Assembly (NCBI GenBank): GCA_005883215.1
Contig: VAYS01000009.1
Span: 124,001 to 188,000, forward strand
Source of the DNA: Actinomycetota bacterium
GTDB taxonomy: Bacteria > Actinomycetota > Thermoleophilia > Solirubrobacterales > Solirubrobacteraceae
DNA: 64,000 nucleotides
Reading direction: 5' to 3'
The position numbers and the translations under genes were made by a program. Below the pieces are notes generated by a model. That model was not told the DNA's origin. It worked only from the letters and a program-made list of their open reading frames with translations, and did no database searches. Shown here piece by piece: positions 5,823 through 35,120 of this stretch (positions are counted from its first letter, which is position 1; the number at the start of each line of letters is the position of its first letter).

Positions 5823-8800
5823 GTGGCCGCGATCCGAGCCCCTGTCCTTCCCCGCGACCTGACGACCGGCCAGCGCACCGCCCTGGACCACCCGGGCGGA
5901 CCTCGGCTGCTAGTCGGCGGCGCCGGCGCCGGCAAGACCCACACCCTGCTGGCGCGCTTCATCGGCCTGGTCTCCGGGGGGGTGCCCCCCGAGGCGGTGC
6001 TGGTGCTCGCCCAGTCCGAGCGCGGCGCCGACCGGCTTCGCCGGGCGCTGGAGGACGCCCTCACCGAGCCCTACGAGGAGCTGTGGGTGCTCAGCGTCGC
6101 CGGCCTGTGCGCGCGGATCCTGCGCGACGCCGCCGCCCAAGCGGGGCTCGATCCGTTCTCGGTCCCCGCCACCCGCGCCGACCGCGTGGCGCTGTTGCTC
6201 GAGCACCTCGACGAGCTGTCCCTGCGCCATCATGACCTGGGCGGACGCCCGGCCGTCGCGCTCGCCCGCCTGGTGGCCCGGGTGGACGAGCTAAAGCGCG
6301 AGCTGGTCACCGCGCCCGACCACGCGGCCTGGGCGGAGGCCCTGCCCGCCGCGGGCGGCGAGGCCGGCGCGGCGCACGCCGAGCGCGAGCGCGAGTTCGC
6401 CCACCTTTATCTCCACCACGACCGCCTGCTCGAGCGGCGCGGGACGCCGGACACCGGCGAGCTCTTGATTCGCACCCTCGGCCTGCTGCGCGAGCAGGCA
6501 TCGGTGCGCGAGCGCCTGGGCCAGCGCTTTGCCCACATCCTCAGCGACGACTACCAGGAGGCCGGTCTCGCCGCCCGCGAGGTGATCGCCGCGCTGGGTG
6601 AGGGCGCCTCCGAACTGCTGGTGGCGGCCGATCCCGACCAGGCGATCGGGCGCCGGCGGACCCTGCCGAACGCCAACCTGCGCGCGTTCTCCGAGCGCTT
6701 CCCGGGGGCGACCACGGTGCGCCTGAAGGACAGCCTGCGCCTGCCGCGCCAGATCGCCGCGGCCGCCGAAGCCGTCCTGGCCCCAGTGCGAGGCCGGGCC
6801 CCGGCCGCGCTGGAGGGCCGCCCGGGCGGCGAGGTGCGCTTCTGGCGCTGCGCCAACGAGCGTGCCCAGGCGCAGGCGGTGGCCGCCGACGTCGAGCGGC
6901 TCGTCACCCGCGAAGGGGTCCCGCCGTCGCGCGTCGCGGTGCTCGTGCGCTCGCTGGCCGGCGAGGGCGAGGCAGTGGATGCCGCGCTGGAGGAGCGGGC
7001 GGTGCCCCACCTGCTGGTGGGTGCGGCGGCGTTCTTCGAGCGCGCCGAGATCCGCGACGTGCTCGCCTGGCTGCGGCTGCTCATCGACCCCCGCGACGCC
7101 GGTGCGGTGGTGCGCGCGCTCGCCCGTCCGCCGGTCGAGCTGCGGTCGATCGATCTGGCCCGCTGCATTCAGATCGCCCGCCGGCGCAAGCTCGACATGG
7201 TCGCCGGGCTGGCGGCGGCGACCGAGTCGCCCCAGGTCCCCCCCGATGCCCGCGATCGCATCCTCGGCTTCCTGCGCCTGCACGCCTCGGCGATGGGCGC
7301 CCTGGACACCACCCGCCCCGACCTGTTCGTGCATCGCCTGATCGAGCGGCTCGGTCTGCGTCGCCAGCAGCTCTACGCCGCCCATACCGACGTCGTCGAG
7401 CGACTGCGCAACCTGGCCAAGCTGACCGAGCTGGCCGCCGCCCACGGGCGGCGCGCCCCCCAGGCCACCGCGCGGGAGTTCGCCGTCTACCTGGCCGCGG
7501 TCGCCGACGCGGGGCTGCCCGAGGAGGAGGCGGCGCCGGCGAACCGGCCCGGCGCCGTGCAGATCATGGCCATGGACCACGCCCAGGGGCTGGAGTTCGA
7601 CCATGTCTACGTGCTGGGCCTGCATTCCGCCCGCATGCCCGGCGCCCGGCGGCCAGGACCCGAGCCGATCCCCGACGAGCTGCTCTCGGGTCCGGTGGTG
7701 GCCGACGACCGCGACGCCCACGTTGCCGAGATGCGGCGCCTCCTGTACGTGGCGATGACGCGCGCCCGGGAGCGGGTCGTGCTCGCCTACCCGGCCTACG
7801 GCGAACGCGGCTCGCTCCAGCATCCCTCGCCGTTTGCCGAGGAGGCCCGGGCGGCCGTCGACGCCAGCTGGGAGGAGCGCGACGAGGAGCTGTTCGGGCC
7901 CGCCGAATCGCTGCACTCGATGTTTCGCCTGCTGCGCGACGAGATGCTGGACAGCGTGGGGCGCGTCGGGGGACGGCTGGGCGAGCTGCGCCTGGACACC
8001 GACCTCGACGTCTCGCACGGCGTCGTGCGCTACCTCGAGCTGGTAAAGCTGGCCGCCCTGCTCGATCGTCCCACCGACCAGAGCATCGGGGACGCCCTGT
8101 CCGACGTCAACGCGCGTGTCCTGCAGGCGGCCACTTCGCTGCAGCGCGAGATCTTCCAGAGCTCCCCTCTGGACGAGATGCTGCTCGACGCCGAACGCTC
8201 GGAGGCCGGTCGCGCGCTGGGGCTCCAGGCCCGGGACGAGCCCTCGCTGGAGGCGTTCCTGCCCCGCCGCGGAGACGGGCTTTTGCTGTCGGCCTCCGAC
8301 ATTGAGACCTACCTGACCTGCCCTCTGAAATACAAGTTCGCCCGGGTCTTTCGCATCCCCCAGGAACCGACGCTCAACCAGCGCTTCGGCATCCTCGTCC
8401 ACCAGGTGCTGGAGCGCTTTCACGGCGCCGGTGGGAGCAGCATCGACGAGCTCCACGGCCTGCTGGCCGCGGGCTGGCGCCGCGGCGGCTTCGGCGACTC
8501 CGAGGAGGAGCGCCAGCTGCGCGAGAAGGCGCGCGCGGCGCTGAGCGCCTACCACCGGCGTTTCTCCCACGAGCAAGGCGAGCCCATGTGGTTCGAGCGC
8601 GCGTTCTCGTTTCGTCTCGGCGCCCACCAGCTGCGCGGCCGCGTGGACCGCGTCGACCGCCTGCCCGGCGGCGGCTACGAGCTGATCGACTACAAGACGG
8701 GCCGTCCCAAGTCCCGCTCCCAGCTCCAGGACGACGTCCAGCTCTCCCTGTACGCGATCGGGGCCCGGGAGGCGTGGCGGCTGGACCCCGAGCTGCGCTC

Positions 8801-8987
8801 CTACTACTACGTCCTCGACGACGAGAAGGTCGCGCTGGAGCCCGATGACGGCGAGGGCGAGGCGATCCGCGAGACCGTGCTCGAGGTGGGCGACGCGATC
8901 ATGGGACAGGGCTTTGAGCCCACACCGTCCTACGCGGCGTGCTCGGTGTGCGAGTACCGGCTGGTCTGCCCGGCGGCCGAGAAGTGA
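5823..8987 (+). CDS. UvrD-like helicase fused to RecB/AddB-type Fe-S nuclease domain
   Basis: A 1054-residue SF1A DNA helicase with a PD-(D/E)XK nuclease end, the layout of AddA/AddB-like double-strand-break processing enzymes. Walker A is GAGAGKT (33-39). Motif II reads L-S-D-D-Y-Q-E instead of D-E-x-Q. The motif III region is VAADPDQAIG, and motif VI is YVAMTRARERV. The nuclease has DYKTG (D956) and QLSLY. Four cysteines (C833, C1040, C1043, C1049) are placed as in the AddB iron-sulfur staple. The GTG start directly faces the phosphatase gene. A partner subunit is not seen nearby, so it may act alone, as in several actinobacterial families. Confident in domains, less so in pathway. Confidence 0.88.
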   Translation: MAAIRAPVLPRDLTTGQRTALDHPGGPRLLVGGAGAGKTHTLLARFIGLVSGGVPPEAVLVLAQSERGADRLRRALEDALTEPYEELWVLSVAGLCARILRDAAAQAGLDPFSVPATRADRVALLLEHLDELSLRHHDLGGRPAVALARLVARVDELKRELVTAPDHAAWAEALPAAGGEAGAAHAEREREFAHLYLHHDRLLERRGTPDTGELLIRTLGLLREQASVRERLGQRFAHILSDDYQEAGLAAREVIAALGEGASELLVAADPDQAIGRRRTLPNANLRAFSERFPGATTVRLKDSLRLPRQIAAAAEAVLAPVRGRAPAALEGRPGGEVRFWRCANERAQAQAVAADVERLVTREGVPPSRVAVLVRSLAGEGEAVDAALEERAVPHLLVGAAAFFERAEIRDVLAWLRLLIDPRDAGAVVRALARPPVELRSIDLARCIQIARRRKLDMVAGLAAATESPQVPPDARDRILGFLRLHASAMGALDTTRPDLFVHRLIERLGLRRQQLYAAHTDVVERLRNLAKLTELAAAHGRRAPQATAREFAVYLAAVADAGLPEEEAAPANRPGAVQIMAMDHAQGLEFDHVYVLGLHSARMPGARRPGPEPIPDELLSGPVVADDRDAHVAEMRRLLYVAMTRARERVVLAYPAYGERGSLQHPSPFAEEARAAVDASWEERDEELFGPAESLHSMFRLLRDEMLDSVGRVGGRLGELRLDTDLDVSHGVVRYLELVKLAALLDRPTDQSIGDALSDVNARVLQAATSLQREIFQSSPLDEMLLDAERSEAGRALGLQARDEPSLEAFLPRRGDGLLLSASDIETYLTCPLKYKFARVFRIPQEPTLNQRFGILVHQVLERFHGAGGSSIDELHGLLAAGWRRGGFGDSEEERQLREKARAALSAYHRRFSHEQGEPMWFERAFSFRLGAHQLRGRVDRVDRLPGGGYELIDYKTGRPKSRSQLQDDVQLSLYAIGAREAWRLDPELRSYYYVLDDEKVALEPDDGEGEAIRETVLEVGDAIMGQGFEPTPSYAACSVCEYRLVCPAAEK

Positions 8988-12998: not shown

Positions 12999-13090
12999 GG
13001 AGCGGCAGGGGTCTGGTGGCCCATCCGGTCTTCAAAACCGGCAGGGCGTCGCAGCCCGGCGCTTGGAAGGTTCGATTCCTTCGCCGCTCC
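12999..13090 (+). tRNA. selC: tRNA-Sec (anticodon UCA)
   Basis: The 92-nt sequence folds as a bacterial selenocysteine tRNA. The 8-bp acceptor stem (12999-13006 with 13083-13090) and 5-bp T stem (13066-13070 with 13078-13082) stack to 13 bp, the tRNA-Sec hallmark. The D stem (13009-13013 with 13018-13022) closes a minimal 4-nt loop TGGT. The anticodon stem (13025-13029 with 13037-13041) carries a CTTCAAA loop with anticodon TCA at 13032-13034. A long variable arm of about 24 nt contains GGGC/GCCC. The discriminator is G13091 and CCA is not encoded. It reads UGA as Sec with SelB and a SECIS element. No selA, selB or selD lies in this window. Confidence 0.95.
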
Positions 13091-13265
13091 GTGCCGGCAA
13101 ATCCGAACGATGGGCCTCCCTAGCGGGCGGGCGCAGCGAGTCGCCTACGCACCACCGGGGGGCTCGGCCGGCGAATTGGCGAGGGCGTTGATCGCGGGAT
13201 GCCTTGCGCTCATGGCCGGGGGCGGTTAGCGTCGGCGGCAAGGCACCCGAGTCGAGGAGGATCAC

Positions 13266-18385: not shown

Positions 18386-20101
18386 ATGCCAGCCAACGTT
18401 GCCCGGGGGCAGGTCGTGGTCGTCGGCGCGGGGATCGCCGGCTTGGTGACCACGCTCGAGCTGCTGGACCGGGGGCGCGACGTGTTGCTGCTCGACCGTT
18501 GCCGGCCCGAGGAGCTGGGCGGGCTGGCGCGGGAGGCCTTCGGCGGGATGTTCATGGTCGACACGCCCGAGCAGCGGCGCTCGGGCATTCGCGACACCGT
18601 GGCGTTGGCGCTCGAGGACTGGCTGCGGGTGGCCGACTTCGATCCCCAGGACGACTGGCCACGGCGCTGGGCCGAGCGCTACGTCCAGCGAGCGCGCGAC
18701 GAGGTGGGGGGCTGGCTGCGCGAGCATGGGGTGCGTTTCTTCCCGGTGGTCAACTGGGCCGAGCGCGGCGTGTTCGGCGATGGCAACTCGGTGCCGCGCT
18801 TTCATCTCACTTGGGGAACGGGCAAGGCGCTCGTCGACGCGATGTGGAGTTCGATCGAGCGCCACCCGCGCCGCCAGGCGCTCGACGTGCGCCTGCGCAC
18901 GCGCGTCACGGAGTTAGTGGTCGAGGGCGACGAGGTGACCGGATGTCGCACCGCCCCGGAGGAGGGCGGGCCCCAGTCCGAGGTGGCTGCCGCGGCGGTG
19001 GTCATCGCCGCCGGCGGCATCGGGGGCAACCTGGACCTCGTGCGCCGGGAGTGGCCGTCGAACCTGGGCCCGCCCCCGCGCGACATCCTCATGGGCTCGC
19101 ACTACTACGCCGACGGGGCCATGCACGAGGAGGTATCGCGCATCGGCGGCAACGTCACCCACCTCTCGCGCATGTGGAACTACGCCGATGCCGTGCACCA
19201 CCCCCATCCCCGCCGGCCGCTGCACGGGCTCAAGCTGATCCCTCCCCGCTCGGGGCTCGTGCTCGACCCCCGCGGCCGCCGCTATGGGCCGGTGCCGGTG
19301 ATGCCCACCTTTGACGCCTACCACGCGCTCGAGCGCATGTGCGAGGACGAGCGCAAGTACAGCTGGCTGGTCTGCAACTTCAAGATCGCCAGCCGCGAGC
19401 TCGACGTCTCGGGAGCCGAGCACAACCCCCACCTGCGCGAGAAGCGCCTCGGGCGCTTCGTGGCCAGCGTGCTGCTCGGTAAGCCGGCGCTGGTCCGCTA
19501 CTTCATCCACGGCTGCCCGGACTTCGTCACCGCCGACTCGGTGCCCGAGCTGGCCGCGCGCATGAACGATTGCACCGGCGAGCCGGCGGTGGATGCACAG
19601 CTGCTCGAGCGCGAGGTGCGCCGCTATGACGCCAACCTCGCGCGCGGCAAGAGCCTGTTTAACGACGATCAGCTGCGCCGTATCGCCCAGCTGCGCAACT
19701 GGCGCGGCGATCGCCTGCGCACCGCGCGCTTTGCCCGCATCGACGACGCCAAGGCCCGCCCGCTGATCGCGATTCGCCTGCAGGTCATGGCCCGCAAGAG
19801 CCTGGGCGGGATCCAGACCGACCTGGAGTGCCGCGTTCTGCGGGCCGACGGAACGCCCATACCGGGGCTGTACGCGGCCGGGGAGGCCGCCGGCTTCGGC
19901 GGCGGCGGCCTGCACGGCAAGCGCTCCCTGGAGGGGACGTTCCTGGGCGCGTGCGTCCTCACCGGCCGTGTCGCCGCCCAGTCGGTCGCTTCGCCGGGGG
20001 TCTCGACCGGCGCGCCGGCGGCGGTTCCGACGGCAAGCCTGTCCTCTGTCAGTGGGCCAACGTCTGCCTCGGCGGGCGGCGGCTCGGCGGCGCACGCCTG
20101 A
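18386..20101 (+). CDS. FAD-binding dehydrogenase (fumarate reductase/ketosteroid dehydrogenase superfamily)
   Basis: A 571-residue flavoprotein. The dinucleotide-binding motif VVVGAGIAGL (11-20) is followed by an acidic end of strand (LLLLDRC). A late FAD-contacting segment is GLYAAGEAAGFGGGGLHG, where the superfamily has LYAAGE-x-G-G-x-H-G. The middle domain is the substrate-capping region. The last 45 residues are a Ser/Ala/Gly/Pro tail. Family members remove two hydrogens from steroid-like or acyl substrates. The benzoylformate-decarboxylase-like gene begins only 22 nt downstream, which implies an operon and possibly a shared 2-oxo-acid or aromatic substrate; the exact reaction is unknown. 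Confidence 0.8.
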   Translation: MPANVARGQVVVVGAGIAGLVTTLELLDRGRDVLLLDRCRPEELGGLAREAFGGMFMVDTPEQRRSGIRDTVALALEDWLRVADFDPQDDWPRRWAERYVQRARDEVGGWLREHGVRFFPVVNWAERGVFGDGNSVPRFHLTWGTGKALVDAMWSSIERHPRRQALDVRLRTRVTELVVEGDEVTGCRTAPEEGGPQSEVAAAAVVIAAGGIGGNLDLVRREWPSNLGPPPRDILMGSHYYADGAMHEEVSRIGGNVTHLSRMWNYADAVHHPHPRRPLHGLKLIPPRSGLVLDPRGRRYGPVPVMPTFDAYHALERMCEDERKYSWLVCNFKIASRELDVSGAEHNPHLREKRLGRFVASVLLGKPALVRYFIHGCPDFVTADSVPELAARMNDCTGEPAVDAQLLEREVRRYDANLARGKSLFNDDQLRRIAQLRNWRGDRLRTARFARIDDAKARPLIAIRLQVMARKSLGGIQTDLECRVLRADGTPIPGLYAAGEAAGFGGGGLHGKRSLEGTFLGACVLTGRVAAQSVASPGVSTGAPAAVPTASLSSVSGPTSASAGGGSAAHA

Positions 20102-20123
20102 CCCTCTAACCGCAGGAGGTTTC

Positions 20124-21722
20124 ATGCCCACCGTCCGCGAGGCCACCTTCCAGTTCCTGCGCCAGCGCGAGATGACGACGATGTTCGGGAACCCGGGTTC
20201 GACCGAGCTCCCTTTCCTGGCCCAGTTCCCCGAGGACTTCCGCTATGTGCTCGGGCTACAGGAGGCGGTCGCGGTGGGCATGGCCGACGGATACGCCCAG
20301 GCCAGCGGTCGGCCAACCCTGGTCAACCTCCACACCGCCCCCGGCGTGGGCAACGGGATGGGGGCGATCTTCAACGCCCAGGCCAACAAGTCTCCGCTGG
20401 TGGTCACCGCCGGTCAGCAGGCGCGCTCCCTGATGACCCTGCAGGCCAACCTCACCAACCGCGACGCGGTGCGCATGCCCCACCCGCTGGTCAAGTGGAG
20501 CTATGAGCCGCCGCGCGCCCAGGACGTGCCGCACGCTCTGGCCCGGGCCGTGCACCTGTCCGCGCTCCCGCCCCGAGGTCCGGTGTTCGTCTCTATCCCC
20601 ATGGATGACTGGGACGTCGAGGTCGACCCCGGCGACGTGGCCCACCACACCGCCCGGCGCGTGGTCGGGCGCGCCGGCGCCGACCCACAGGAGGTGGCCG
20701 ACCTGGCACACGCGCTCTCGGAGGCCAAGAGCCCGGTGCTGGTGGTGGGTCCCGACGCCGACTCCAGCGTCGCCTGGGAGGCGGCGGTCGCCCTGGCCGA
20801 GCGCCAGCGCCTGCCGGTGTGGGCCACCCCGGCGCCCGGAGGCGGGCGGATCGGCTTTCCCGAGGATCACCCGAACTTCCGGGGGATCCTCCCGCCGGCG
20901 ATCGGGCCGGTGTCCGAGACGCTCGGGGGCCACGACCTGATCCTGGTCGCCGGGTCCTCGGTGTTCCCCTACTACCCGAACATCCCCGGTCCCCTGCTCC
21001 CGGACGGGGCGCGCCTGGTGGCGTTGACCAGCGACCCCGACGAGGCGGCGCGGGCGCCGATGGGAGACGCTCTGGTCGCCGACGTGGGCCTGACCCTCGC
21101 CGCGCTGGTCGAGGCCGTGGGCGACAGCGACCGTCCGGCGCCCGATCCGCGCTGGCCGGCCGAACCGCCCCCCGAGGAGGATCCGATCAACCCCTCGGCG
21201 GCCATGGCGGCTCTGGCCGAGGTGTTTCCCGACGAGGGCATCGTCGTGCTCGAGTCACCTTCGAGCACGCTGGCGCTGCGCAACCGGCTGCGCCTGAGGC
21301 GCCCCGGCTCCTACTACTTCGGCGCCGGCGGCGGCCTGGGCTTCGGCCTGGCCGCCGCGATCGGGGTCCAGCTCGCGCGGCCCGACCGCCCGGTGGTGTG
21401 CGTGATGGGCGAGGGCTCGGCCCAGTACGCGATCCAGGGCCTGTGGACCGCGGTCGCCTACCAGGTACCGGTCACCTTCCTCGTCGTGCGCAACGACGAA
21501 TACGCGATCTTGAAGTGGTTTGCCACCATGGAATCCGTCACCGGGGCTCCGGGGCTGGACCTCCCGGCGCTCGACTCGGTCGGCGTCGCCACCGGCTATG
21601 GCATGCGCGCGCGCCGGGTCGCCGGTGTCGAGGAGCTGTCCGAGGAGCTTGGACGGGCGATCGCCTCCGATGCCCCCGAGCTGGTCGAGGTCAAGGTGGC
21701 ACCGGGCATGGCGCTGGCCTGA
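20124..21722 (+). CDS. mdlC: Thiamine-diphosphate-dependent benzoylformate decarboxylase-like enzyme
   Basis: A 532-residue ThDP enzyme very like Pseudomonas benzoylformate decarboxylase. AGGAGG precedes ATG 20124. Known active-site residues of that enzyme are matched at identical positions: S26 (NPGSTELP), E47 (LQEAVAVG) and H70 (NLHTAPGVG). The ThDP pyrophosphate motif is GEGSAQYAIQGLW...VVRNDEY. The second catalytic histidine (H281 in Pseudomonas, in F-R-Y-H-Q) aligns with Y284 here (F-P-Y-Y-P), so chemistry or substrate may differ. It probably decarboxylates an aryl or branched 2-oxo acid to an aldehyde. It is co-transcribed with the upstream FAD dehydrogenase. Confidence 0.8.
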   Translation: MPTVREATFQFLRQREMTTMFGNPGSTELPFLAQFPEDFRYVLGLQEAVAVGMADGYAQASGRPTLVNLHTAPGVGNGMGAIFNAQANKSPLVVTAGQQARSLMTLQANLTNRDAVRMPHPLVKWSYEPPRAQDVPHALARAVHLSALPPRGPVFVSIPMDDWDVEVDPGDVAHHTARRVVGRAGADPQEVADLAHALSEAKSPVLVVGPDADSSVAWEAAVALAERQRLPVWATPAPGGGRIGFPEDHPNFRGILPPAIGPVSETLGGHDLILVAGSSVFPYYPNIPGPLLPDGARLVALTSDPDEAARAPMGDALVADVGLTLAALVEAVGDSDRPAPDPRWPAEPPPEEDPINPSAAMAALAEVFPDEGIVVLESPSSTLALRNRLRLRRPGSYYFGAGGGLGFGLAAAIGVQLARPDRPVVCVMGEGSAQYAIQGLWTAVAYQVPVTFLVVRNDEYAILKWFATMESVTGAPGLDLPALDSVGVATGYGMRARRVAGVEELSEELGRAIASDAPELVEVKVAPGMALA

Positions 21723-22696: not shown

Positions 22697-24208
22697 TCAG
22701 GCCGCCGGCGCCAGGGCCGGCTCCGGCGCGCGTTCGCCCACCGGCTGCACCACGTAATCGCTCGGCGCGAAACGAGCCGTGCGACGGCGAAAGTCAAACG
22801 TAAAGCCGGGCCACAGCGTTGAGTTGCGGCCCTGGGAATCGAGGTACCAGCTCGCGCAGCCTCCCGCCGTCCATACCGTTTCGCGCATCTGCTCCTGGAC
22901 CTCGGCGTTGAAGCGCGCCTGCACCTCCGGGCGTACATCGATCGTGGCCAGCCCCTGCCGGCGCATCGTCCGCAGCGCGTCCATGATGTAAGCCAGCTGG
23001 GACTCGATCATGTACACGATCGAGTTGTGCCCCAGCCCGGTATTGGGGCCAACCAGCGCGAACAGGTTGGGAAAGCCCGAGATCGTGGTGCCCAGGTAGG
23101 CCCGGGGGCTGCCCTGCCAGACGTCGTTGAGGGTCTGTGCGTCGCGTCCGAGGACCCGGTCGGCCCACGGCATCTCGGTCACCCGGAAGCCGGTTCCGAA
23201 GATGATCGTGTCCACCTCGCGGCGGGCGCCGTCCCGGGTCACGATCGCGTTGGCCTCGACGCGCTCGATGCCCTCGGTGACCACCTCGACATTGGGCTGG
23301 GTGATCGCCGGGTAGTAGTCGTTGGAAAGCAGGATGCGCTTGCATCCGATCGTGAAGCCGGGAGTGAGCCTGCGGCGAAGCTCCGGGTCGGGGACCTGCC
23401 GGCGCAGATGGCGGCGCGCCAGCAGCTCGGGCAGCTTCATCAGTCCCCGGTGGCCGGCGAGCCCCAGCACGAGCCACTCGCGCGACAGGTAGATGCTCGC
23501 GCGCGTCAACCGCTGGAGGAAGGGAAGCATCCGGTACAGGCGCCGCTCGGCGTGGGAAACCGGGCGGTCCGAGTGCGGCAGGACCCACGTGGGCGTGCGC
23601 TGGAAGACGTGCAGTGAACTCGCCTGCGGCTGAATCCGGGGGATGACCTGGATCGCCGAGGCGCCGGTGCCGATGACCGCCACGCGCTCGCCCCCGAGGT
23701 CGTGCTCGTGGTTCCACTGCGCCGTGTGAAAGGCGGTGCCCTGGAAGCGGTCGAGTCCCGGCAGCTCCGGGGTCGATGGCTCGCTCAGACCACCGACGGC
23801 TGAGATAATGACGTCGGCGCACAGCGGCCCGTGCGAGGTGTCCAGTCGCCAGCGCCGCTCCTCCTCGCACCACGCCGCCCCCAGCAGCTCGTGATCGAAG
23901 CGGATGTGCTCGATCAGGCCGTGGCGCTCGGCGCACCGGCGCAGGTAGGCCCAGATCTCGGGCTGGCAGGAGAACGTCCGGCTCCAGTCGGGGTTGGGCT
24001 CGAACGAGAACGAGTACAGGTGCGAGGGCACGTCGCACTGACACCCCGGGTAGGTGTTGTCGTACCACGTGCCGCCCACGTCGGCCCGGCGCTCGAGTAC
24101 GACGAAGTCGTGCATCCCCGCCTGCTTGAGCCGGATGGCCATCCCCAGGCCCGAGAAGCCGGCGCCGACGATCGCCACCCTGACGGCGTCCGGAGCCGCC
24201 GCGCTCAT
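22697..24208 (-). CDS. Flavin-containing (Baeyer-Villiger type) monooxygenase
   Basis: A 503-residue class B flavoprotein monooxygenase. It has the FAD Rossmann motif GAGFSG (15-20), the NADPH motif GTGASA (180-185) and the full BVMO fingerprint F-x-G-x3-H-x3-W between them (F155 to W165). An ATG conserved for MSAAAPDAVRV is at 24208, and its first bases overlap the stop of the upstream membrane protein gene (ATGA), so the two are translationally coupled. Such enzymes oxidise ketones to esters or hydroxylate amines and sulfides using NADPH and O2; the ketone substrate here is unknown. The coupling to a membrane protein is unusual and may indicate a membrane-bound substrate or uptake. Confidence 0.85.
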   Translation of the reverse strand: MSAAAPDAVRVAIVGAGFSGLGMAIRLKQAGMHDFVVLERRADVGGTWYDNTYPGCQCDVPSHLYSFSFEPNPDWSRTFSCQPEIWAYLRRCAERHGLIEHIRFDHELLGAAWCEEERRWRLDTSHGPLCADVIISAVGGLSEPSTPELPGLDRFQGTAFHTAQWNHEHDLGGERVAVIGTGASAIQVIPRIQPQASSLHVFQRTPTWVLPHSDRPVSHAERRLYRMLPFLQRLTRASIYLSREWLVLGLAGHRGLMKLPELLARRHLRRQVPDPELRRRLTPGFTIGCKRILLSNDYYPAITQPNVEVVTEGIERVEANAIVTRDGARREVDTIIFGTGFRVTEMPWADRVLGRDAQTLNDVWQGSPRAYLGTTISGFPNLFALVGPNTGLGHNSIVYMIESQLAYIMDALRTMRRQGLATIDVRPEVQARFNAEVQEQMRETVWTAGGCASWYLDSQGRNSTLWPGFTFDFRRRTARFAPSDYVVQPVGERAPEPALAPAA

Positions 24209-26100
24209 GCTGGCAGGGGCGCCCCGGCGCCCAGCTCGGTACGGACCCGCGGGCGGTCGGTCTCGACGGCCCCCACCTCTAGCCGGCGCAGCCCGAAGCC
24301 CAGCCCCACCAGCCACAGGGTGGCGATGCCGAACAGGACCAGGTAGGCCGGCACCTCCAGCCACGCCGACCCCCCGACCGCCTCGCGCTGCAGGATCTTC
24401 TTATCGCGCAGGAAGGAGCGGGTGACCCCGTTGGCGGCCGGCACCCCCTTGGCCGGGATGGCCGAGTCCTCGGGAAGGTAGATCGGGGCCGCTTGCAGCG
24501 CGCGGCCGTTCTCCATGCGCAGGATCGCCTTCCACTGACCGTAGACGGGGATCGGCCGGGTCGTCTCATAGGTACCTGGCGACACGCGGCGCAGGCGATC
24601 GACGATCAGACCGCCCCCCTGCCAGGCGGTGGCCGTCAGCCACTGGGCGTGGCGAGCGGGGTCGCCGGGCGACAGGGTGGCGCGCACCGCCACGGTCTGG
24701 TGGGGCGGTGGCTGCACGGTGGCGAGCGTGAGCGTGGCCTGGGTGGGGTGCCCCGAGGTCATGGGCAGGGGGAAGGCAATCACGCCGACCGCGACCACCG
24801 CCGCCAGCGGCAGGACCCACCGCGGGGGCCGCTGGGTGGGCCGGCCCTGGCCGGAGGTCAGCGCCCGGCCGACGTACCCGCCCAGCACGCCGCCGGCCAG
24901 CGCCCCGGCCAACCCCAGCGCCAGCGCCTGTCCGAGCAGCGAGCCGGGCCAGGGCAGGGGCATCCACACGTGCGACCAGCCCCATTCCGCCGCCAGCCCC
25001 ACGGTGCCGATGAGGAACCCGCTCACCGCCCCCAAAGTGACCGGCCGGCGCGGGGAGATCACCAACGCCGCCAGCTCGACGATGATCGCCTCGGGAAGGT
25101 AGAGCGGGAAGTGCAGGATGCTCATGCCGAGGATCGGTCCGATGACCACGGTCAGCAGGCCGCGTACGAACAGGTAGAAGCCGACCGCCTGCAGTGCCCC
25201 CAGGCGCCCGAGGTAGACCCGCGCCGCCACCAGGCCACAGCCGGCGGCGAGCATCAGCATGATCGGCTGATAGACGAGCTGGAACTGGGGGACGCCGAAG
25301 TCGAACTCGGCTTGCAGGGAGGAGAGGCCGAGGAGGAAGGCGCCGGCCAGCTGGACCGAGCGAAAGTGCGTGAACGCGCGCAGCGCCCGCGAGGGCGGCG
25401 GACCGCCCCTGGCCCGGGTCGCGCGCCAGCCCTCGACCAGCAGCACCCACACGCCCAGGGTGGCCAGCGACGCGCCCGCGATCATCAGCACGTGGGTGGG
25501 ACCCCACAGGGTGACGTCCTGACCGAACAGCGAGTGCCACACGTCGTCAAGCGGAAAGCCCGACAGGGCAAACGCCCCGCACAAGAAGATCAACCCGCCG
25601 CCCAACGAGACGTGCCAATCGCGCGTGATGCGCAGGGAGGTCGCGCTGCGCGGGGCGCCCATGATGATCGACAGATAGCCGGCCAGGGCGATCCCGGCCA
25701 GGCCAGCCAGGATCGGATAGTGCGCTGGGGTTCCGAACGGGCTGGGATCGCGCCCGGTGTCGATGTGCTTGGCCACGTCCCAGTAAAAGCCGAACACCGC
25801 TAGGAGCAGCGCCCCTCCCGCTACTCCGGCGGGCACGGCGGCCCAGCTGGGCAGCCCGGAGACGCGCGCCGAGAAGGCCCCCAGGCGCTGCAGCGCGGGC
25901 AGGCCGCGACGGCGGTGCACCACCCCGGCCCACACGGCCAGGAGGGTGAGGAGGGCCGCTACGCCGGTGCCCCAAACGATGTCCCCCAGACGCGCCCCCT
26001 TGGCCGGCGGGGGGCCCGCGGCCACGGCCGCCGGGGCGAGCGCCAGCGCCAGCGCCAGGGCAGCGGTCGCCGCGACGCCGACGCGTCCCAGGGTGCCCAT
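24205..26100 (-). CDS. Large polytopic membrane protein with signal peptide and C-terminal extracytoplasmic domain
   Basis: About 631 residues, unrecognised. MGTLGRVGVAATAALALA followed by AVAAGPPPAKG is a good signal peptide, so ATG 26100 is preferred over an upstream GTG at 26175. Roughly a dozen hydrophobic helices follow. The stretch after about residue 445 (TSGHPTQATLTLATVQPPPHQ) looks like a beta-rich domain outside the membrane before one last helix near the C-terminus. Conserved-looking His/Asp residues occur in the loops (FYWDVAKHIDTGRDPSPFGTPAH, WHSLFGQDVTLWGPTHVLM), which could bind a metal. It overlaps the monooxygenase start by 4 bp. A palindromic operator-like site lies 59 nt upstream. 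Confidence 0.75.
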   Translation of the reverse strand: MGTLGRVGVAATAALALALALAPAAVAAGPPPAKGARLGDIVWGTGVAALLTLLAVWAGVVHRRRGLPALQRLGAFSARVSGLPSWAAVPAGVAGGALLLAVFGFYWDVAKHIDTGRDPSPFGTPAHYPILAGLAGIALAGYLSIIMGAPRSATSLRITRDWHVSLGGGLIFLCGAFALSGFPLDDVWHSLFGQDVTLWGPTHVLMIAGASLATLGVWVLLVEGWRATRARGGPPPSRALRAFTHFRSVQLAGAFLLGLSSLQAEFDFGVPQFQLVYQPIMLMLAAGCGLVAARVYLGRLGALQAVGFYLFVRGLLTVVIGPILGMSILHFPLYLPEAIIVELAALVISPRRPVTLGAVSGFLIGTVGLAAEWGWSHVWMPLPWPGSLLGQALALGLAGALAGGVLGGYVGRALTSGQGRPTQRPPRWVLPLAAVVAVGVIAFPLPMTSGHPTQATLTLATVQPPPHQTVAVRATLSPGDPARHAQWLTATAWQGGGLIVDRLRRVSPGTYETTRPIPVYGQWKAILRMENGRALQAAPIYLPEDSAIPAKGVPAANGVTRSFLRDKKILQREAVGGSAWLEVPAYLVLFGIATLWLVGLGFGLRRLEVGAVETDRPRVRTELGAGAPLPA

Positions 26101-26158
26101 CGTCAAACGTCGCACGGCGGTCCTCCCGCGTAGAGGTGCATCGGACGGAGGGAATATT

Positions 26159-26172
26159 ACACGAAATCGTGT
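26159..26172. promoter_or_regulatory. Palindromic operator-like site (ACACGA-AA-TCGTGT)
   Basis: A perfect inverted repeat with 6-bp arms and a 2-bp centre in a locally AT-rich patch. Reading the minus strand it is followed at once by TAATAT (a -10-like element), so a dimeric repressor here, for example of the TetR type, would block transcription of the membrane protein-monooxygenase pair. No regulator gene is adjacent. Confidence 0.5.
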
Positions 26173-26244
26173 CACATAGCTTGGTGCCTACGTCGCCGGC
26201 CCCGCGGGGGCGTCCGCCACATCGCCGGTCGGCGCCGCCGGCGA

Positions 26245-26745
26245 CTAGCCGTGGCCGATCGAGGAACCCGAGAGCAGGAAGAACCACCCTTCGAACGCCA
26301 CCACGGCGAGCACCACGCTGATGACCATGATCCGCTCCATGGCCCCCAGGCCCCGGCGCTCGGTGGAGTGCGTAGGGCGCTCGTCGCGCATGCTGCGCAT
26401 CCAGCTCGCCCGCTCCGGGCGGCGCGGCGCGCGGCCGGCCGCACGCTCGTAGGCCGCGCCCAGGCGTCCCAGCGCCGCGATCAACGCGATCTCGAAGATC
26501 ACCAGCGCGGCGATCACCGAGAACACCGCGCCCATGCTCAGCGAGGTGCTGGTGCGCTGGACTTTGGAGCCGATCCACACCGCCAGCAGCGGGCTGCCCG
26601 TCCACACGTTGACGCTGGCCAGGGCGATCAGAGCAGCCAGGATCACGCGCTTGACCCACGACTTGCGGGGCGGCGGCTCGGGGGCAGCCCGTCGGCGGAC
26701 CGGGGCGCCCGCCCGTTGTCCACCCGTGCCCGCGTGCGTTTCCAC
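26245..26745 (-). CDS. Small membrane protein, three helices
   Basis: About 166 residues with three predicted helices (VILAALIALASVNVWTG, MGAVFSVIAALVIFEIALIA and IMVISVVLAVVAFEGWFFLL). They are separated by an Arg-rich loop, and the N-terminus is basic and Pro-rich. It is not recognised. The GTG at 26745-26743 is preferred; a TTG two codons upstream is equally open. It is divergent from the selenoprotein gene (62 nt between starts), and the intervening DNA holds the 8-bp sequence AAGGGGTA twice (26750 and 26788 regions), a possible shared control site. Confidence 0.65.
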   Translation of the reverse strand: METHAGTGGQRAGAPVRRRAAPEPPPRKSWVKRVILAALIALASVNVWTGSPLLAVWIGSKVQRTSTSLSMGAVFSVIAALVIFEIALIAALGRLGAAYERAAGRAPRRPERASWMRSMRDERPTHSTERRGLGAMERIMVISVVLAVVAFEGWFFLLSGSSIGHG

Positions 26746-26807
26746 CCCCAAAGGGGTACCACGTCCGTCCGCCGCGCGCCAATACCGGAAGGGGTAGCGT
26801 CTGACCC

Positions 26808-27869
26808 GTGATCCTCACCGCACCCGAGATCGACCCCGGCGCCTTCGCCGAGCACACGGGCTGGGAGATCAAGCCGGAGGGCGCCTGCAAGGCCGACCGC
26901 TGCGTGCCCCTGCCCGGTGCGCCCGAGGAGGGTCCGGTGCCGGCCGCACTGCTGGCCGAGCCCCTGGGCATGGCGCTGGTCCACGACGCTCCTCGCGCGC
27001 TATGGGCGCTCGGCCCCGAGTCGGGGGGGCGGGCGCTGCTGTCGGCGCAGATGCCCGAGCTCGAGCTGCCCGACCGCCACGGACGGCCGTTCTCGCTTGG
27101 CTCGCTTCGGGGGACGCGCGTGGTGATGGTCGCCTGGGCCTCGTGGTGAGGCTGCCGCTTTGACCTGCCCGTGTGGCAGGAACTGCGCGAGGAGCTGGTA
27201 CCCCAGGGCGTCGAGGTCCTCACCGTCGCGCTCGACAGTGGCGGAGCCGAGGCCGCCGGACCGTTCATCGATGCCGCCAACCCGCGGCATCCCTCGTTGA
27301 TCGACGCCACGCACCGGCTCGACGAGCTGCTGGGCATCAACAACGTCCCCATGGGCGTGTGGATCGACGAGCAGGGCACGCTGGTGCGGCCCCCCGAGAT
27401 CGCCCACCCCGGCACCAGCGTTCTGCGCGACATGCTCGCCGAGCACGGCGTGCCCCAGGACGCCCCGCCGCTGCTGCTCGAGACGCTGGCCGAGGCGGCC
27501 AAGATCAGGGTCGATCCCGAGCGCTACGGCGCCGCCCTGCGCGACTGGGCACGGCGCGGCGGCGAGTCGCCCTATGCGCTCTCCCCCGACGAGGTAGTCG
27601 AGCGCTCGCGTCCGCGCCCGCCCGAGCTCTCCGAGGCCGCCGCCCACTTCGAGCTCGGCGTCCATCTACGCGCCGAGGGGGACGTCGACGCCGCGCGCGA
27701 GCACTTCCGGGCGGCCCATCGTCTCGATCCGGGCAACTGGACCTACAAGCGTCAAGCCTGGTCGCTCGAGGATCCTCTCCAGGGACCGACCGAGTACTAC
27801 GAGGGCGACTGGCTCAAAGACGTGCGCGCCAGTGGGGCCGAGCACTACTACCCGCGGCCGGACCTCTAG
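26808..27869 (+). CDS. Selenoprotein: TlpA/ResA/AhpC-like thioredoxin-fold protein with in-frame UGA (Sec)
   Basis: A single frame from GTG 26808 to TAG 27869, interrupted only by TGA 27147-27149. Read as Sec, it is 353 residues. An N-terminal region has TGWEIKPEGACKADRCVPLP (C27, C32). The thioredoxin-like domain runs from about 80: MPELELPDRHGRPFSLGSLRG, then WASW-U-GCR (U114, C116), with NVPMGVWID carrying the probable cis-Pro (P181). A TPR-like helix pair is at about 275-313, followed by a Trp/Tyr-rich tail. The TGA falls where thioredoxins have the attacking Cys, and a SECIS-like hairpin follows. Codon use and conserved fold continue past the TGA. No signal peptide is seen, so it is probably cytoplasmic. 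The substrate is unknown; peroxide or disulfide reduction is likely. Confidence 0.93.
27164..27180 (+). promoter_or_regulatory. Bacterial SECIS element of the selenoprotein mRNA
   Basis: CCTGCC (27164-27169), loop CGTGT (27170-27174) and GGCAGG (27175-27180) form a perfect 6-bp hairpin. It begins 14 nt after the UGA, and its loop G-U lies about 24-25 nt from the U of the UGA. A GU in a small apical loop at this distance is what SelB recognises in E. coli fdhF. It lies inside the coding sequence (P-V-W-Q region). Confidence 0.88.
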
Positions 27870-31464: not shown

Positions 31465-32508
31465 GTGCCCGCCCCGGCGGCCGCCGCGGCCCACCTCACC
31501 GCGCGCGGCGGGCGCGCCGATCCCGACCTTCTCCTCGTCTCGCTGGGCTCGACCGCCGGGCTGCGCGCCGCCGACGCCGATCTGAAGGCCTCGCTCGAGC
31601 GGGGCGGGGCCCGGGTCGCGCTGGCGGCCGCCGAGCCCCGGCGCGACCGACGCACGTTCGCCTTGACCGATCTGGCCTGGGCCCGCGCCGCGCGCCGCGC
31701 GGCGCGCCGCGCGCTGGCCGCCCAGAACCCACGCGCCCTGCTGTATTCGACCGTGACCGCCGCGCTGCTGTGGCCGCGCCCGGGCGCGGTCCGCTTCGAT
31801 GCCACCGCGGCGGCCAATCGGCCCGGGCGCCATGGGATCTGGCAGCGTCCGGCCGAACGCCGGCGGCTGCGCGCGGCGCCGCTGCTCGTGCCCGCGACCG
31901 AGGCGGCGCTGACCGAGTCGGGGCTGGCGGACGAGCCCGCGGTGGTGGTGCCGATCCCGGTCGAGCCCTCGGGTCCGCCCGCGGCGCGCGACATTGCCGC
32001 GCTGACCTACGCCGCCGACCCGGTCAAGAAGGGGCTCGAGCGGGTGCTGGGCGCCTGGGAGCTGGCCCGCCGCCCCGGCGAGGAGCTGGTGGTGGCCGGT
32101 CTGGCCCCGGCCCGCGTGGCCGAGCTCGTCGGGGCCGATCCGGCCACGGCGGGCATCCGGGCGGTGGGCTCTTTGCCCCGCGACCAGTACCGCGCGCTCC
32201 TGCGCCGCGCGCGGGTGTTCGTGACCGCACCCCGCCGCGAGGACTACGGTGCGGCCCAGCTCGAGGCGCTCGCCGACGGCTGCGTGCTGGTGAGCACCCC
32301 GGCCCCGGGCCCCTACCCCGCGCTGGAGCTCGCCTGGGAGCTCGATCCCCAGCTGGTCTCCGAACAGCTCGGCCCCGCCCTGCGCGTCGCGCTCGACGAG
32401 CCGCGCCCCGCCTACCCCGAGCGGGCCGCCGAGCTGCTGTCGCCCTTCCGGCGCGCCGCCGTGGACGCGGTGGTGGCCGAGCGGTTGCTGCCGGCGCTGC
32501 TCGGTTAG
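31465..32508 (+). CDS. Glycosyltransferase, GT4-like
   Basis: A 347-residue GT-B-fold glycosyltransferase. The C-terminal half shows the GT4 donor-site pattern: LTYAADPVKKGLERVLGAW, VVAGL, FVTAPRREDYGAAQLEAL with the E-x7-E motif, and GCVLVSTPAPG. The N-terminal acceptor domain is Ala/Arg-rich and less conserved. GTG 31465 follows the membrane protein stop by 4 nt. Acceptor and sugar are unknown; trehalose-derived or envelope glycans are plausible from the otsB neighbour. Its stop overlaps that of the converging polX by 2 bp. Confidence 0.75.
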   Translation: MPAPAAAAAHLTARGGRADPDLLLVSLGSTAGLRAADADLKASLERGGARVALAAAEPRRDRRTFALTDLAWARAARRAARRALAAQNPRALLYSTVTAALLWPRPGAVRFDATAAANRPGRHGIWQRPAERRRLRAAPLLVPATEAALTESGLADEPAVVVPIPVEPSGPPAARDIAALTYAADPVKKGLERVLGAWELARRPGEELVVAGLAPARVAELVGADPATAGIRAVGSLPRDQYRALLRRARVFVTAPRREDYGAAQLEALADGCVLVSTPAPGPYPALELAWELDPQLVSEQLGPALRVALDEPRPAYPERAAELLSPFRRAAVDAVVAERLLPALLG

Positions 32509-34286
32509 CCCTTGCCCGCGCGCTTGCGCAGCGCGGCAAAGCGCTGGTAGGGCAGCGTGTTGGCGACGTTGGCGGCCGACAACCATGCGCGCCGGGCGGT
32601 GGCCACCCCCCAGCGCACGACGCTCAGCGTGTTGGTCCCGTGCGCGTCGGAGTTGATCAGGATCGGGACGCCGGCGTGGGCGGCCGCCCGGGCAGGCCCC
32701 TCTGCGAGGTCGCGGCGGTCGGGGTTGGAGTTGATCTCGATCATCGTCCCGGTGCGCGCCGCTGCGTCGATCACCTCGTCGAGTGCCACCGCGTAGGGCA
32801 CCCGCCGCTCGATCAGTCGCCCGGTCGGGTGCCCGAGCGCGTCGACCAACGGGTGCTCTAGCGCGGTGATGATGCGGTCGGTCATCTCGCGCTCGTCCAT
32901 GCCAAACGCGGTGTGGACGCTGGCGATAACCCAGTCCAACTCGGCGAGCAGGTCGTCGTCGTAGTCGAGGCCCCCGTCGGGCATGATGTTGACCTCGCTC
33001 CCGGCCAGCAGCTCGATGCCCTCGATCGCGGCGTTGGCCTCGGTCACGCGCTCGATCTGGCGCCGCAGCTCGTCGGGGGAGACGTCGTTACCGAAGCCGT
33101 GGCTGGCCGAGTGGTCGGTGATCGCCAGATACTCGTACCCGCGCTCGCGCGCGGCGAGCGCCATCTGTTCGATCGTGTTGCGCCCATCGGAGGCGACGGT
33201 ATGGCAGTGCAGGTCGCCGCGCAGGTGCTCCGCCCGCACGAGCTCGGGCAGCGCCCCGGGGCCGTCCAGCGCGGCGGCCTCCAGCTCGCCGCGGTTCTCG
33301 CGCAGCTCGGGCTCGATGTAGGCCAGGCCGAGCAGGCGGTAGACCTCCTCCTCGACCGAGCACCGGTGGGTCTCGCCGCTAGCGTCCTCGAGCACGCCGT
33401 ACTCGGAGACGTGAAGACCACGGCGCACGGCGGCCTCGCGCAGCGCCATGTTGTGCTCCTTGGAGCCGGTCAGGTGCTGGAGCAGGTTGCCGAACTGGTC
33501 ATGCTCGACCACGCGAAAGTCGATGGCCAGCCCGGTATGGGCCCGCGCCCGGGCGCCGGCGTCACCGGTACGCTCGCAGCTCTCGACTACGTCGAGCTCG
33601 GCCAGCGCCGAGGTGAGCAGCGCCGGATCGGCCCCGGCGGCGACGATGTCGAGATCCTTGACGCTGTCGGCCATCCGGCGCGCCGAGCCGGCGACCTCGA
33701 CGCGCACCTCGGGCCCCCCGGCCGCCACCAGGCCCTCGACTAGGCGCTCGGCCTGGCCCAGGGCGCGGTGCAGCAGGAACCGGGGCGCCGTGCGTTCGGC
33801 CACGCCGGCGTCCAGCGCGGCCAGAACCGTCTCCTCGAACTTGGCTCCGAACCCGCGTAGGCCGCGCAGCCGTTGCGCCGCGGCCGCCTCGCGCAGCGCC
33901 TCCAGCGAGGCCAGGCCGAGCTCGTCGAAGAGGCGGCGCGCGCGCTTGGGGCCCATGCCGGGCAACCGGGTGAGATCGATCAGGCCAGGGGGAAACCTCG
34001 AGCGCAGCTTCTCGGCGGCGGCGAGGGTGCCCGTGTCGGCGAGCTCGACGATCTTCTGCTGCAGCGTCTCGCCTATGCCCGACAGCTCGGTGGCCCGGCC
34101 CTCGCGGGCCAGCGCGGCCACCGACACCGGCGCGTCGCGCACCGCGCGGGCGGCGCTGCGGTAGGCGACCACGCGGTGGATGATCGCCCCGTCGAGCTCG
34201 TAGAGGTCGCCCAGCTCCTCGAACGCCGCAGCGATCGCCCCGTTGGAGGGATTTGGCGGCGCCGGGGGCTTGGGGGTCGGGGGCAC
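32505..34286 (-). CDS. polX: DNA polymerase X with PHP phosphoesterase domain
   Basis: A 593-residue PolX-type repair enzyme. From the N-terminus it has helix-hairpin-helix segments (ELSGIGETLQQKIVEL, LPGMGPKRARRLFDELG, LRGLRGFGAKFEETVL), the nucleotidyltransferase palm (EVAGSARRMADSVKDLDIV, with AIDFRVV supplying the third carboxylate) and a C-terminal PHP metal-dependent domain (GDLHCHTVASDGRNTIEQM, ITDHS, SEVNIMPDG, INSDAHG). It fills short gaps and trims ends in base-excision repair. GTG 34286 (V-P-P-T-P-K) is taken as start because the open frame before it is antisense to the next gene. It is divergent from the Dpm1-like gene with 24 nt. Confidence 0.88.
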   Translation of the reverse strand: MPPTPKPPAPPNPSNGAIAAAFEELGDLYELDGAIIHRVVAYRSAARAVRDAPVSVAALAREGRATELSGIGETLQQKIVELADTGTLAAAEKLRSRFPPGLIDLTRLPGMGPKRARRLFDELGLASLEALREAAAAQRLRGLRGFGAKFEETVLAALDAGVAERTAPRFLLHRALGQAERLVEGLVAAGGPEVRVEVAGSARRMADSVKDLDIVAAGADPALLTSALAELDVVESCERTGDAGARARAHTGLAIDFRVVEHDQFGNLLQHLTGSKEHNMALREAAVRRGLHVSEYGVLEDASGETHRCSVEEEVYRLLGLAYIEPELRENRGELEAAALDGPGALPELVRAEHLRGDLHCHTVASDGRNTIEQMALAARERGYEYLAITDHSASHGFGNDVSPDELRRQIERVTEANAAIEGIELLAGSEVNIMPDGGLDYDDDLLAELDWVIASVHTAFGMDEREMTDRIITALEHPLVDALGHPTGRLIERRVPYAVALDEVIDAAARTGTMIEINSNPDRRDLAEGPARAAAHAGVPILINSDAHGTNTLSVVRWGVATARRAWLSAANVANTLPYQRFAALRKRAGKG

Positions 34287-34310
34287 GCGGGCACTAGGGT
34301 ACGCCGCCTG

Positions 34311-35120
34311 TTGAGCGGTCCCGCTTGGCTCATCCTCCCCACCTACAACGAGGCCGAGAACCTCGAGCCGATCGTGACCGCCGCCCACCAGGTGCTGGCG
34401 AGCGCCGCCCCCGAGGGATTCCGGATCCTGGTGGTCGACGACACCTCTCCCGACGGGACCGGGGAGCTGGCCGACCGGCTGGCCGAGCGCCTGGCCGAGG
34501 TGTGCGTGCTTCACCGCACCGAGCGCCAAGGCCTGGGTCCCGCCTACCTAGCCGGCTTCGCCCACGCGCTGGCCCACGGCGCGGGCTACGTGATGGAGAT
34601 GGACGCCGACTTCTCCCACGACCCGGGCGACCTGGCCCGCCTGCTCGACGCCGTGCACGCCGGCGCCGACCTTGCGCTGGGCTCGCGGTACGTGCCCGGT
34701 GGCGGGGTCAGCGACTGGGGGCCGCTGCGCCGCTTCATCAGCCAGGGGGGCTCCACCTACGCGCGCTGGGTCCTGAGCATCCCGATCAAGGACCTGACCG
34801 GCGGCTTCAAGTGCTTCCGGCGCGAGGTGCTGGAGTCCATCGATCTGCCCACCGTGCGCTCCCAGGGCTATGCCTTTCAGGTCGAGCTCACCTACCGCAC
34901 GCTGCTCATGGGCTTCGACGTAGTCGAGGTCCCGATCGTGTTTCGCAACCGCCGCGTGGGCACGAGCAAGATGTCCTGGCACATCGCCGTCGAGGCGATG
35001 TGGCTGGTGCCCCAACTGCGCTTCGGCCGCTCGCACCGATTCGAGGGACACCCGCGCGCCAAGGCCCCGCCGGGGCCCGAAGCCGACCCGGCCAGCGAGC
35101 GCGAGCCGGCCGGCCGCTAG
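34311..35120 (+). CDS. Polyprenol monophosphomannose synthase-like glycosyltransferase (GT2)
   Basis: A 269-residue GT-A enzyme of the Dpm1/Ppm1 family, which transfers mannose from GDP-mannose to polyprenyl phosphate. Motifs: LPTYNEAENLEPIV at the N-terminus, VVDDTSPDGTGELAD, and the DxD-region MEMDADFSHDPGDL. LTGGFKCFRREVLESID and RNRRVGTSKM follow. The start is TTG 34311 (or the CTG before it); no ATG or GTG is available. It would supply mannosyl donor for lipoarabinomannan-type or glycoprotein glycans. It converges on a secreted-protein gene whose stop is 5 nt downstream. Confidence 0.85.
   Translation: MSGPAWLILPTYNEAENLEPIVTAAHQVLASAAPEGFRILVVDDTSPDGTGELADRLAERLAEVCVLHRTERQGLGPAYLAGFAHALAHGAGYVMEMDADFSHDPGDLARLLDAVHAGADLALGSRYVPGGGVSDWGPLRRFISQGGSTYARWVLSIPIKDLTGGFKCFRREVLESIDLPTVRSQGYAFQVELTYRTLLMGFDVVEVPIVFRNRRVGTSKMSWHIAVEAMWLVPQLRFGRSHRFEGHPRAKAPPGPEADPASEREPAGR

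What the first reader, a model, noticed from the sequence alone, without database searches (positions are those of the whole stretch)
26808..27869. Selenoprotein: UGA read as Sec in a TlpA/AhpC-like redox protein
Seen: the frame continues for 240 codons after TGA 27147 with the thioredoxin-fold features intact, including a cis-Pro candidate in NVPMGVWID. The TGA sits where the catalytic Cys is expected (W-A-S-W-U-G-C-R). A bSECIS-like hairpin with GU in its loop follows at the right distance. The same chromosome segment encodes tRNA-Sec 14 kb away. A gene finder would split it into two false ORFs (26808-27149 and 27171-27869).
Basis: partly seen in the sequence, partly recalled or inferred. 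Interest (0 to 1): 0.92.

Follow-up and report, generated by a model that had tools for sequence, protein, structure and literature searches.

The report
Known-family UGA-selenocysteine thioredoxin-like protein gene
An actinobacterium carries a redox-protein gene whose internal stop codon is most likely read as selenocysteine; the reading is well supported, but the protein belongs to a family that public annotators already recognise as a selenoprotein.

Summary
One frame runs 26808-27869 with a single in-frame TGA at 27147-27149, codon 114 of 353. Read as one protein, it matches NCBIfam NF041054 (WAxxUGC_long, "ResA-like WAxxUGC motif-containing protein") over its whole length at 528 bits, cut-off 300. 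In 48 scored relatives, codon 114 is TGA in 40, TGC (Cys) in 7 and TAG in 1. The 6-bp stem that starts 14 nt after the TGA shows two-sided compensatory changes across Sec-type relatives, and is complete in 40 of 41 Sec-TGA sequences against 3 of 7 Cys ones. The genome has tRNA-Sec(UCA), SelB, SelD, SelA and an FdhA-like gene with an in-frame TGA. One flaw: selA as assembled lacks about 55 residues and shifts frame, by assembly error or real lesion. The protein probably works as a disulfide or peroxide reductase with a Sec-Gly-Cys site, an N-terminal domain holding an invariant Cys pair, and a C-terminal TPR-containing domain. The selenoprotein interpretation is supported; the finding is a new member of a known family, of modest interest.

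The parts
26808..27869 (+). Selenoprotein gene, 353 aa, NF041054 family (ResA-like WAxxUGC motif-containing protein)
   Evidence: one in-frame TGA; 528 bits over residues 2-352
27147..27149 (+). TGA, Sec codon 114
   Evidence: aligned to TGA (40), TGC (7) or TAG (1) in 48 scored relatives
27164..27180 (+). bSECIS-like hairpin: 6-bp stem, 5-nt loop CGTGT, 14 nt after the TGA
   Evidence: 99.5% of cells paired, 8 two-sided compensatory cells against 0.8 in shuffles
26886..26903 (+). Codons 27-32: N-terminal Cys pair C27-x4-C32
   Evidence: Both invariant in the 42 aligned rows
27048..27389 (+). Thioredoxin-fold (AhpC-TSA/redoxin) domain, about residues 81-194, with U114-G-C116 and cis-Pro candidate P181
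   Evidence: best PDB match 1st9_A, ResA, E 1.1e-10
27636..27737 (+). TPR repeat, residues 277-310, in the C-terminal helical domain
   Evidence: PF07719, 28.6 bits, cut-off 27; helices in the model
12999..13091 (+). tRNA-Sec, anticodon UCA
   Evidence: ARAGORN; RF01852, 69.2 bits, gathering 47

Best explanation
The gene encodes a Sec-containing thioredoxin-fold oxidoreductase of the NF041054 (WAxxUGC_long) family. SelB delivers Sec-tRNA(UCA) at UGA 27147, directed by the stem-loop just downstream. Shown by sequence comparison: family membership, Sec/Cys interchange at residue 114, the covarying stem and the Sec machinery genes. Inferred: Sec114 is the attacking nucleophile and Cys116 the resolving residue, forming a selenenylsulfide that is then reduced by a thiol donor; the enzyme works in the cytoplasm (no signal peptide or membrane segment is seen by eye) as a disulfide or hydroperoxide reductase. 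The substrate is unknown; disulfide reductase is the first choice because the fold is ResA-like.
For: NF041054 at 528.2 bits (cut-off 300) over its whole length. Position 114 is TGA in 40, TGC in 7 and TAG in 1 of 48 scored relatives. At least 5 Sec/Cys changes on the tree. Stem covariation: 3 of 6 pairs changed on both sides; 8 such cells against a shuffled mean of 0.8, 0 of 500 shuffles as high. The stem is complete in 41 of 42 TGA rows (window included, one row a duplicate, so 40 of 41), and in 3 of 7 Cys relatives. The Leu codon in the stem ends in G in 41 of 41 rows that have Leu there, against 539 of 1183 Leu codons elsewhere in these genes. tRNA-Sec, SelB, SelD and SelA hits in the genome and an FdhA-like gene with TGA in the context NQARIUHSSTV. 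TGA carriers in a phylum sample have selA in 17 of 18 genomes, against 215 of the other 378. Model with pLDDT 95.4, best PDB match ResA.
Against: selA in this assembly lacks about 55 residues at a conserved place and shifts frame there, while G100, G121 and G272 of the same family have it whole; if real, Sec synthesis would probably fail. The hairpin is no more stable than dinucleotide shuffles (z -0.25), and synonymous recodings of the window stretch fold as well in 35% of trials. The stem overlaps codons for a conserved DLPVWQE stretch, so most of its conservation could be protein-driven: 3 of 7 Cys relatives also keep it whole (L003, L094, L095). The covariation rests on few sequences. The selA co-occurrence test is not corrected for kinship. 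No protein-level data.
Confidence: 0.94

Rival explanations
1. A Cys gene made to look like a Sec gene by a sequencing or assembly error (TGC or TGT read as TGA).
For: The genome is a draft in 54 contigs, and selA in it looks damaged.
Against: 40 relatives have TGA at the same codon, from separate records of at least three phyla; the stem is kept; Sec genes are present.
Confidence: 0.02
2. A decaying gene: the Sec trait has been lost recently (selA lesion) and the UGA is now a true stop.
For: selA as assembled lacks about 55 residues and shifts frame; no further piece of selA is found in the genome at E 0.001. In the sampled genomes of the same taxonomic family the other three carriers have Cys, and two of those lack selA.
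Against: The gene has no other stop, GC3 is alike on both sides of the TGA (0.91 and 0.89), the stem is intact, and tRNA-Sec, SelB, SelD and the FdhA-like UGA gene are present.
Confidence: 0.03
3. Two separate genes, 26808-27149 and 27171-27869, made independently.
For: Standard ORF calling gives this.
Against: The TGA falls inside the thioredoxin domain between a strand and a helix, and 7 relatives encode the region as one uninterrupted Cys protein.
Confidence: 0.01

Closest known systems
NCBIfam NF041054 WAxxUGC_long (ResA-like WAxxUGC motif-containing protein)
   Same: Whole-length match well over cut-off (528 vs 300 bits); same motif and length
   Different: No difference found in what was compared (score, length, motif)
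Prx-like (UGC-containing) selenoprotein of the GOS survey (PMC2398784, passages seen); PMC13188914 (passages seen) lists a UGC-containing TlpA disulfide reductase family protein and cites that survey
   Same: AhpC-TSA/TlpA-type domain with a UGC motif
   Different: Whether those sequences have the N-terminal Cys pair and TPR domain was not tested
Sec-TAG AhpC selenoprotein of Blastococcus saxobsidens (PMC5330540, passages seen)
   Same: AhpC-type protein with recoded Sec; the Blastococcus relative L015 found here has TAG at residue 114
   Different: The window uses UGA and a UCA anticodon; that the published protein is of this same family is inference
ResA / TlpA (PDB 1st9, 1jfu)
   Same: Thioredoxin fold; among the best structural and sequence matches
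   Different: UGC in place of CxxC, no membrane anchor seen by eye, extra N-terminal and TPR-containing domains

Membership tests
NF041054 WAxxUGC_long | Score above the curated cut-off over the whole length | tested here: met
   528.2 bits vs 300, residues 2-352 on 2-353 of 354
NF041054 WAxxUGC_long | WAxx[U/C]GC active site (read from the model's name) | tested here: met
   WASWUGC in the window; U/C114 and C116 invariant in 42 rows
Bacterial selenoprotein | In-frame UGA aligned to Sec or Cys in relatives | tested here: met
   48 of 48 scored relatives: 40 TGA, 7 TGC, 1 TAG
Bacterial selenoprotein | Structured element right after the UGA | tested here: met
   Covarying 6-bp stem with an invariant G in the loop; folding energy by itself not significant; 3 of 7 Cys relatives keep the stem too
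Bacterial selenoprotein | tRNA-Sec, SelA, SelB and SelD in the genome | tested here: inconclusive
   tRNA-Sec, SelB and SelD met; SelA over cut-off (345.6 bits) but as assembled lacks about 55 residues and shifts frame
Bacterial selenoprotein | Selenium incorporated in the protein | not testable with these tools
   Needs labelling or mass spectrometry
TlpA/ResA thiol-disulfide oxidoreductase | Thioredoxin fold with cis-Pro | tested here: met
   Foldseek 1st9_A E 1.1e-10, TMt 0.75; P181 invariant in 42 rows; cis geometry not checked
TlpA/ResA thiol-disulfide oxidoreductase | CxxC active site | tested here: not met
   U-G-C spacing instead
Typical peroxiredoxin (AhpC) | PxxxTxxC catalytic motif (motif recalled) | tested here: not met
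   W-A-S-W-U-G-C at the site, although Pfam AhpC-TSA scores 40.3 vs 26

The most novel reading that the evidence does not exclude
The family is a self-contained redox relay: the N-terminal C27-x4-C32 pair, invariant in all 42 aligned rows whether Sec or Cys stands at residue 114, takes the oxidising equivalents from the U114-C116 selenenylsulfide, so that an external reductase acts on the N-terminal pair while the TPR-containing domain docks the substrate.
Probability: 0.3. Interest if true: 0.4.

Novelty: new member of a known kind. Interest (0 to 1): 0.22.

Why it matters
It shows that blind reading of raw sequence can recover a selenoprotein gene that standard ORF calling splits, and it adds a member with Sec, Cys and UAG relatives that bears on how Sec is gained and lost in Actinomycetota. 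It does not add a new kind of system: the family is already in NCBI's annotation models.

Tried and rejected
Conserved gene neighbourhood: window ORFs of 120 aa or more (stop to stop) overlapping 20-34 kb were compared with 56 loci, whose flanks are short (at most 3 kb a side for those, about 1.5 kb for those of the genome search). Apart from the own-genome locus L056, only the gene itself and frames antisense to it matched broadly; one ORF (19767-21719) matched 2 loci, L022 and L023, at about 27% identity, taken as unrelated. No operon partner was found, so context gives no function.

Plasmid carriage: no match at 1e-20 in the plasmid collection. Defence: no PADLOC match.

Folding energy as evidence for the SECIS: rejected. 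z = -0.25 for 44 nt; mean z = -1.1 over 42 TGA rows against synonymous recodings. Covariation was used instead.

Distance from C27/C32 to U114 in the model: not measured; no model file is in the Python box.

One search read loci of minus-strand matches on the wrong strand; it was discarded and redone.

Rows dropped: L066 (frameshifted) from the codon count; L025, L026, L067, L070 (residue 114 not covered); L056 and L031 (the window itself); duplicates L093 = L003, L062 = L013, L070 = L026. L062 stayed in A1, in the tree and in the 42 TGA rows. L016 and L029 are 95% alike around the site and both counted. L076-L083 scored under 200 and are ordinary CxxC TlpA-like proteins; not counted. Matches for which no locus was returned (for example second copies in G146, G113 and G173) were not scored. 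The selA co-occurrence count uses only TGA matches of 80 bits or more; two weaker TGA matches (G242, G231, 64 bits) and one TAG match (G211, 50 bits) were left out.

Full report
What is there. The frame 26808-27869 (+) starts with GTG, has a single in-frame TGA at 27147-27149 and ends at TAG 27867-27869. The window is 73% G+C and full of long ORFs (230 of 100 aa or more), so the open frame alone proves nothing.

Identity. The joined protein hits NCBIfam NF041054.1 WAxxUGC_long, an equivalog model described as ResA-like WAxxUGC motif-containing protein, at 528.2 bits (cut-off 300) over residues 2-352. Pfam gives AhpC-TSA at residues 80-191 and a TPR at 277-310. An AlphaFold2 model from 42 rows has mean pLDDT 95.4; its best PDB matches are ResA structures (1st9_A, E 1.1e-10, target TM 0.75). 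The sequence search of solved structures ranks a thioredoxin-family protein, TlpA and ResA highest.

Residue 114 in relatives. The search for related loci gave 30 loci; 28 of 30 cover the site: 25 TGA, 2 TGC, 1 TAG. A phylum sample (396 genomes, 13 with a match over cut-off) and a family sample (146 genomes, 4 over cut-off) added more. Without duplicates and the window itself, 48 scored relatives remain: 40 TGA, 7 TGC, 1 TAG. In the family sample the other three carriers (G479; G510, whose gene is identical to that of Patulibacter minatonensis; and G399 with two copies) all have TGC. The tree needs at least 5 Sec/Cys changes. The TAG case is a Blastococcus; PMC5330540 (passages read) reports CUA-anticodon tRNA-Sec in Geodermatophilaceae and a Sec-TAG AhpC in Blastococcus saxobsidens, so it is an expected variant. 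Blastococcus's own tRNA-Sec was not sought here beyond the fetched 7.1 kb, which holds no tRNA gene.

SECIS. A 6-bp stem with a CGTGT loop starts 14 nt after the TGA (27164-27180). In 42 sequences (37 distinct; window, 40 TGA, 1 TAG), 99.5% of cells pair, 3 of 6 pairs have changes on both sides, 8 cells are compensatory (shuffled mean 0.8; 0 of 500 as high), and versions slid by 1-3 columns score lower on every measure. L071 has three of the six pairs replaced and still pairs throughout. The stem is complete in 40 of 41 TGA sequences, window included. Of seven Cys relatives four break it (L018, L068, L074, L092) and three keep it (L003, L094, L095). Against the stem: its energy is not unusual, synonymous recodings reach the window's energy in 35% of trials, and it lies in conserved codons, which alone can keep it in Cys genes.

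Machinery. tRNA-Sec with anticodon UCA is in the window. SelB-like (307.8 bits, cut-off 242.25) and SelA-like (345.6, cut-off 267.9) genes lie together on contig C9, SelD (380.5, cut-off 125) on C24. An FdhA-like gene on C2 has TGA in NQARIUHSSTV, a second probable selenoprotein; none of its match pieces reaches the TIGR01591 cut-off. In the phylum sample 17 of 18 TGA carriers (matches of 80 bits or more) have selA at 1e-30, against 215 of 378 others (Fisher p 0.0007, not corrected for kinship). The exception, G036, has a UCA tRNA-Sec. Of five Cys carriers looked at, G374 and G166 (not among the matches), G479 (21 bits only) and G510 (no match) lack selA, and G399 has it, in two frames.

The flaw. 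The window genome's selA is matched in two pieces, model positions 27-87 and 142-451, in different frames. Translation shows the break after VIVHTN, resuming at VNN, where G100 has about 55 residues between. I cannot tell an assembly error from a real lesion. If real, this genome may be losing Sec use.

Mechanism. Invariant residues in the 42 aligned rows include C27, C32, U/C114, C116, N179, P181 and W185. Inference: Sec114 attacks, Cys116 resolves, and the N-terminal pair may pass electrons. No signal peptide is seen by eye. No conserved neighbour was found in the short flanks held. The substrate is unknown.

Novelty. The family is in NCBIfam, and UGC-containing Prx-like/TlpA-like selenoproteins are in print (PMC2398784, passages; PMC13188914, passages). 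The string WAxxUGC was found in no held paper, and NF041054 and ResA do not occur in the main text of PMC13188914. The listings showed no title on this protein's function; that is a statement about those listings only. One likely relevant paper was not held. Verdict: a correct, well-supported call of a known kind.

Noticed in passing
L033 / G000:C9:183991-185080: selA of the window's genome lacks about 55 conserved residues and shifts frame at the junction; relatives G100, G121 and G272 have it whole.
   Followed up: partly
L085 / G000:C2:39331-40083: FdhA-like gene with an in-frame TGA in the context NQARIUHSSTV: a second probable selenoprotein.
   Followed up: partly
L015:3334-3336: Blastococcus sp. 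relative has TAG, not TGA, at the Sec codon with the stem intact, consistent with published UAG-Sec in Geodermatophilaceae.
   Followed up: partly
L103, L105 (G399:C1:3792836-3794034): selA of G399 is also matched in two frames, in a genome that has tRNA-Sec(UCA) but TGC forms of this family.
   Followed up: no
window 24205-26811: About 2.6 kb upstream of the gene in which none of the ORFs scanned matches NCBIfam or Pfam.
   Followed up: no
window 5823-8987 (+): 1054-aa UvrD/PcrA-like helicase with a C-terminal Cas4-like nuclease stretch.
   Followed up: no
window 32505-34529 (-): Protein with HHH, DNA polymerase beta thumb and PHP domains, a PolX-like arrangement (the name PolX is recalled).
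   Followed up: no
L066 / G237:C1:2560989-2562026: A frameshifted copy of this family, beside a second copy in the same genome (C1:422945-423958) with one TGA and one TAG.
   Followed up: no
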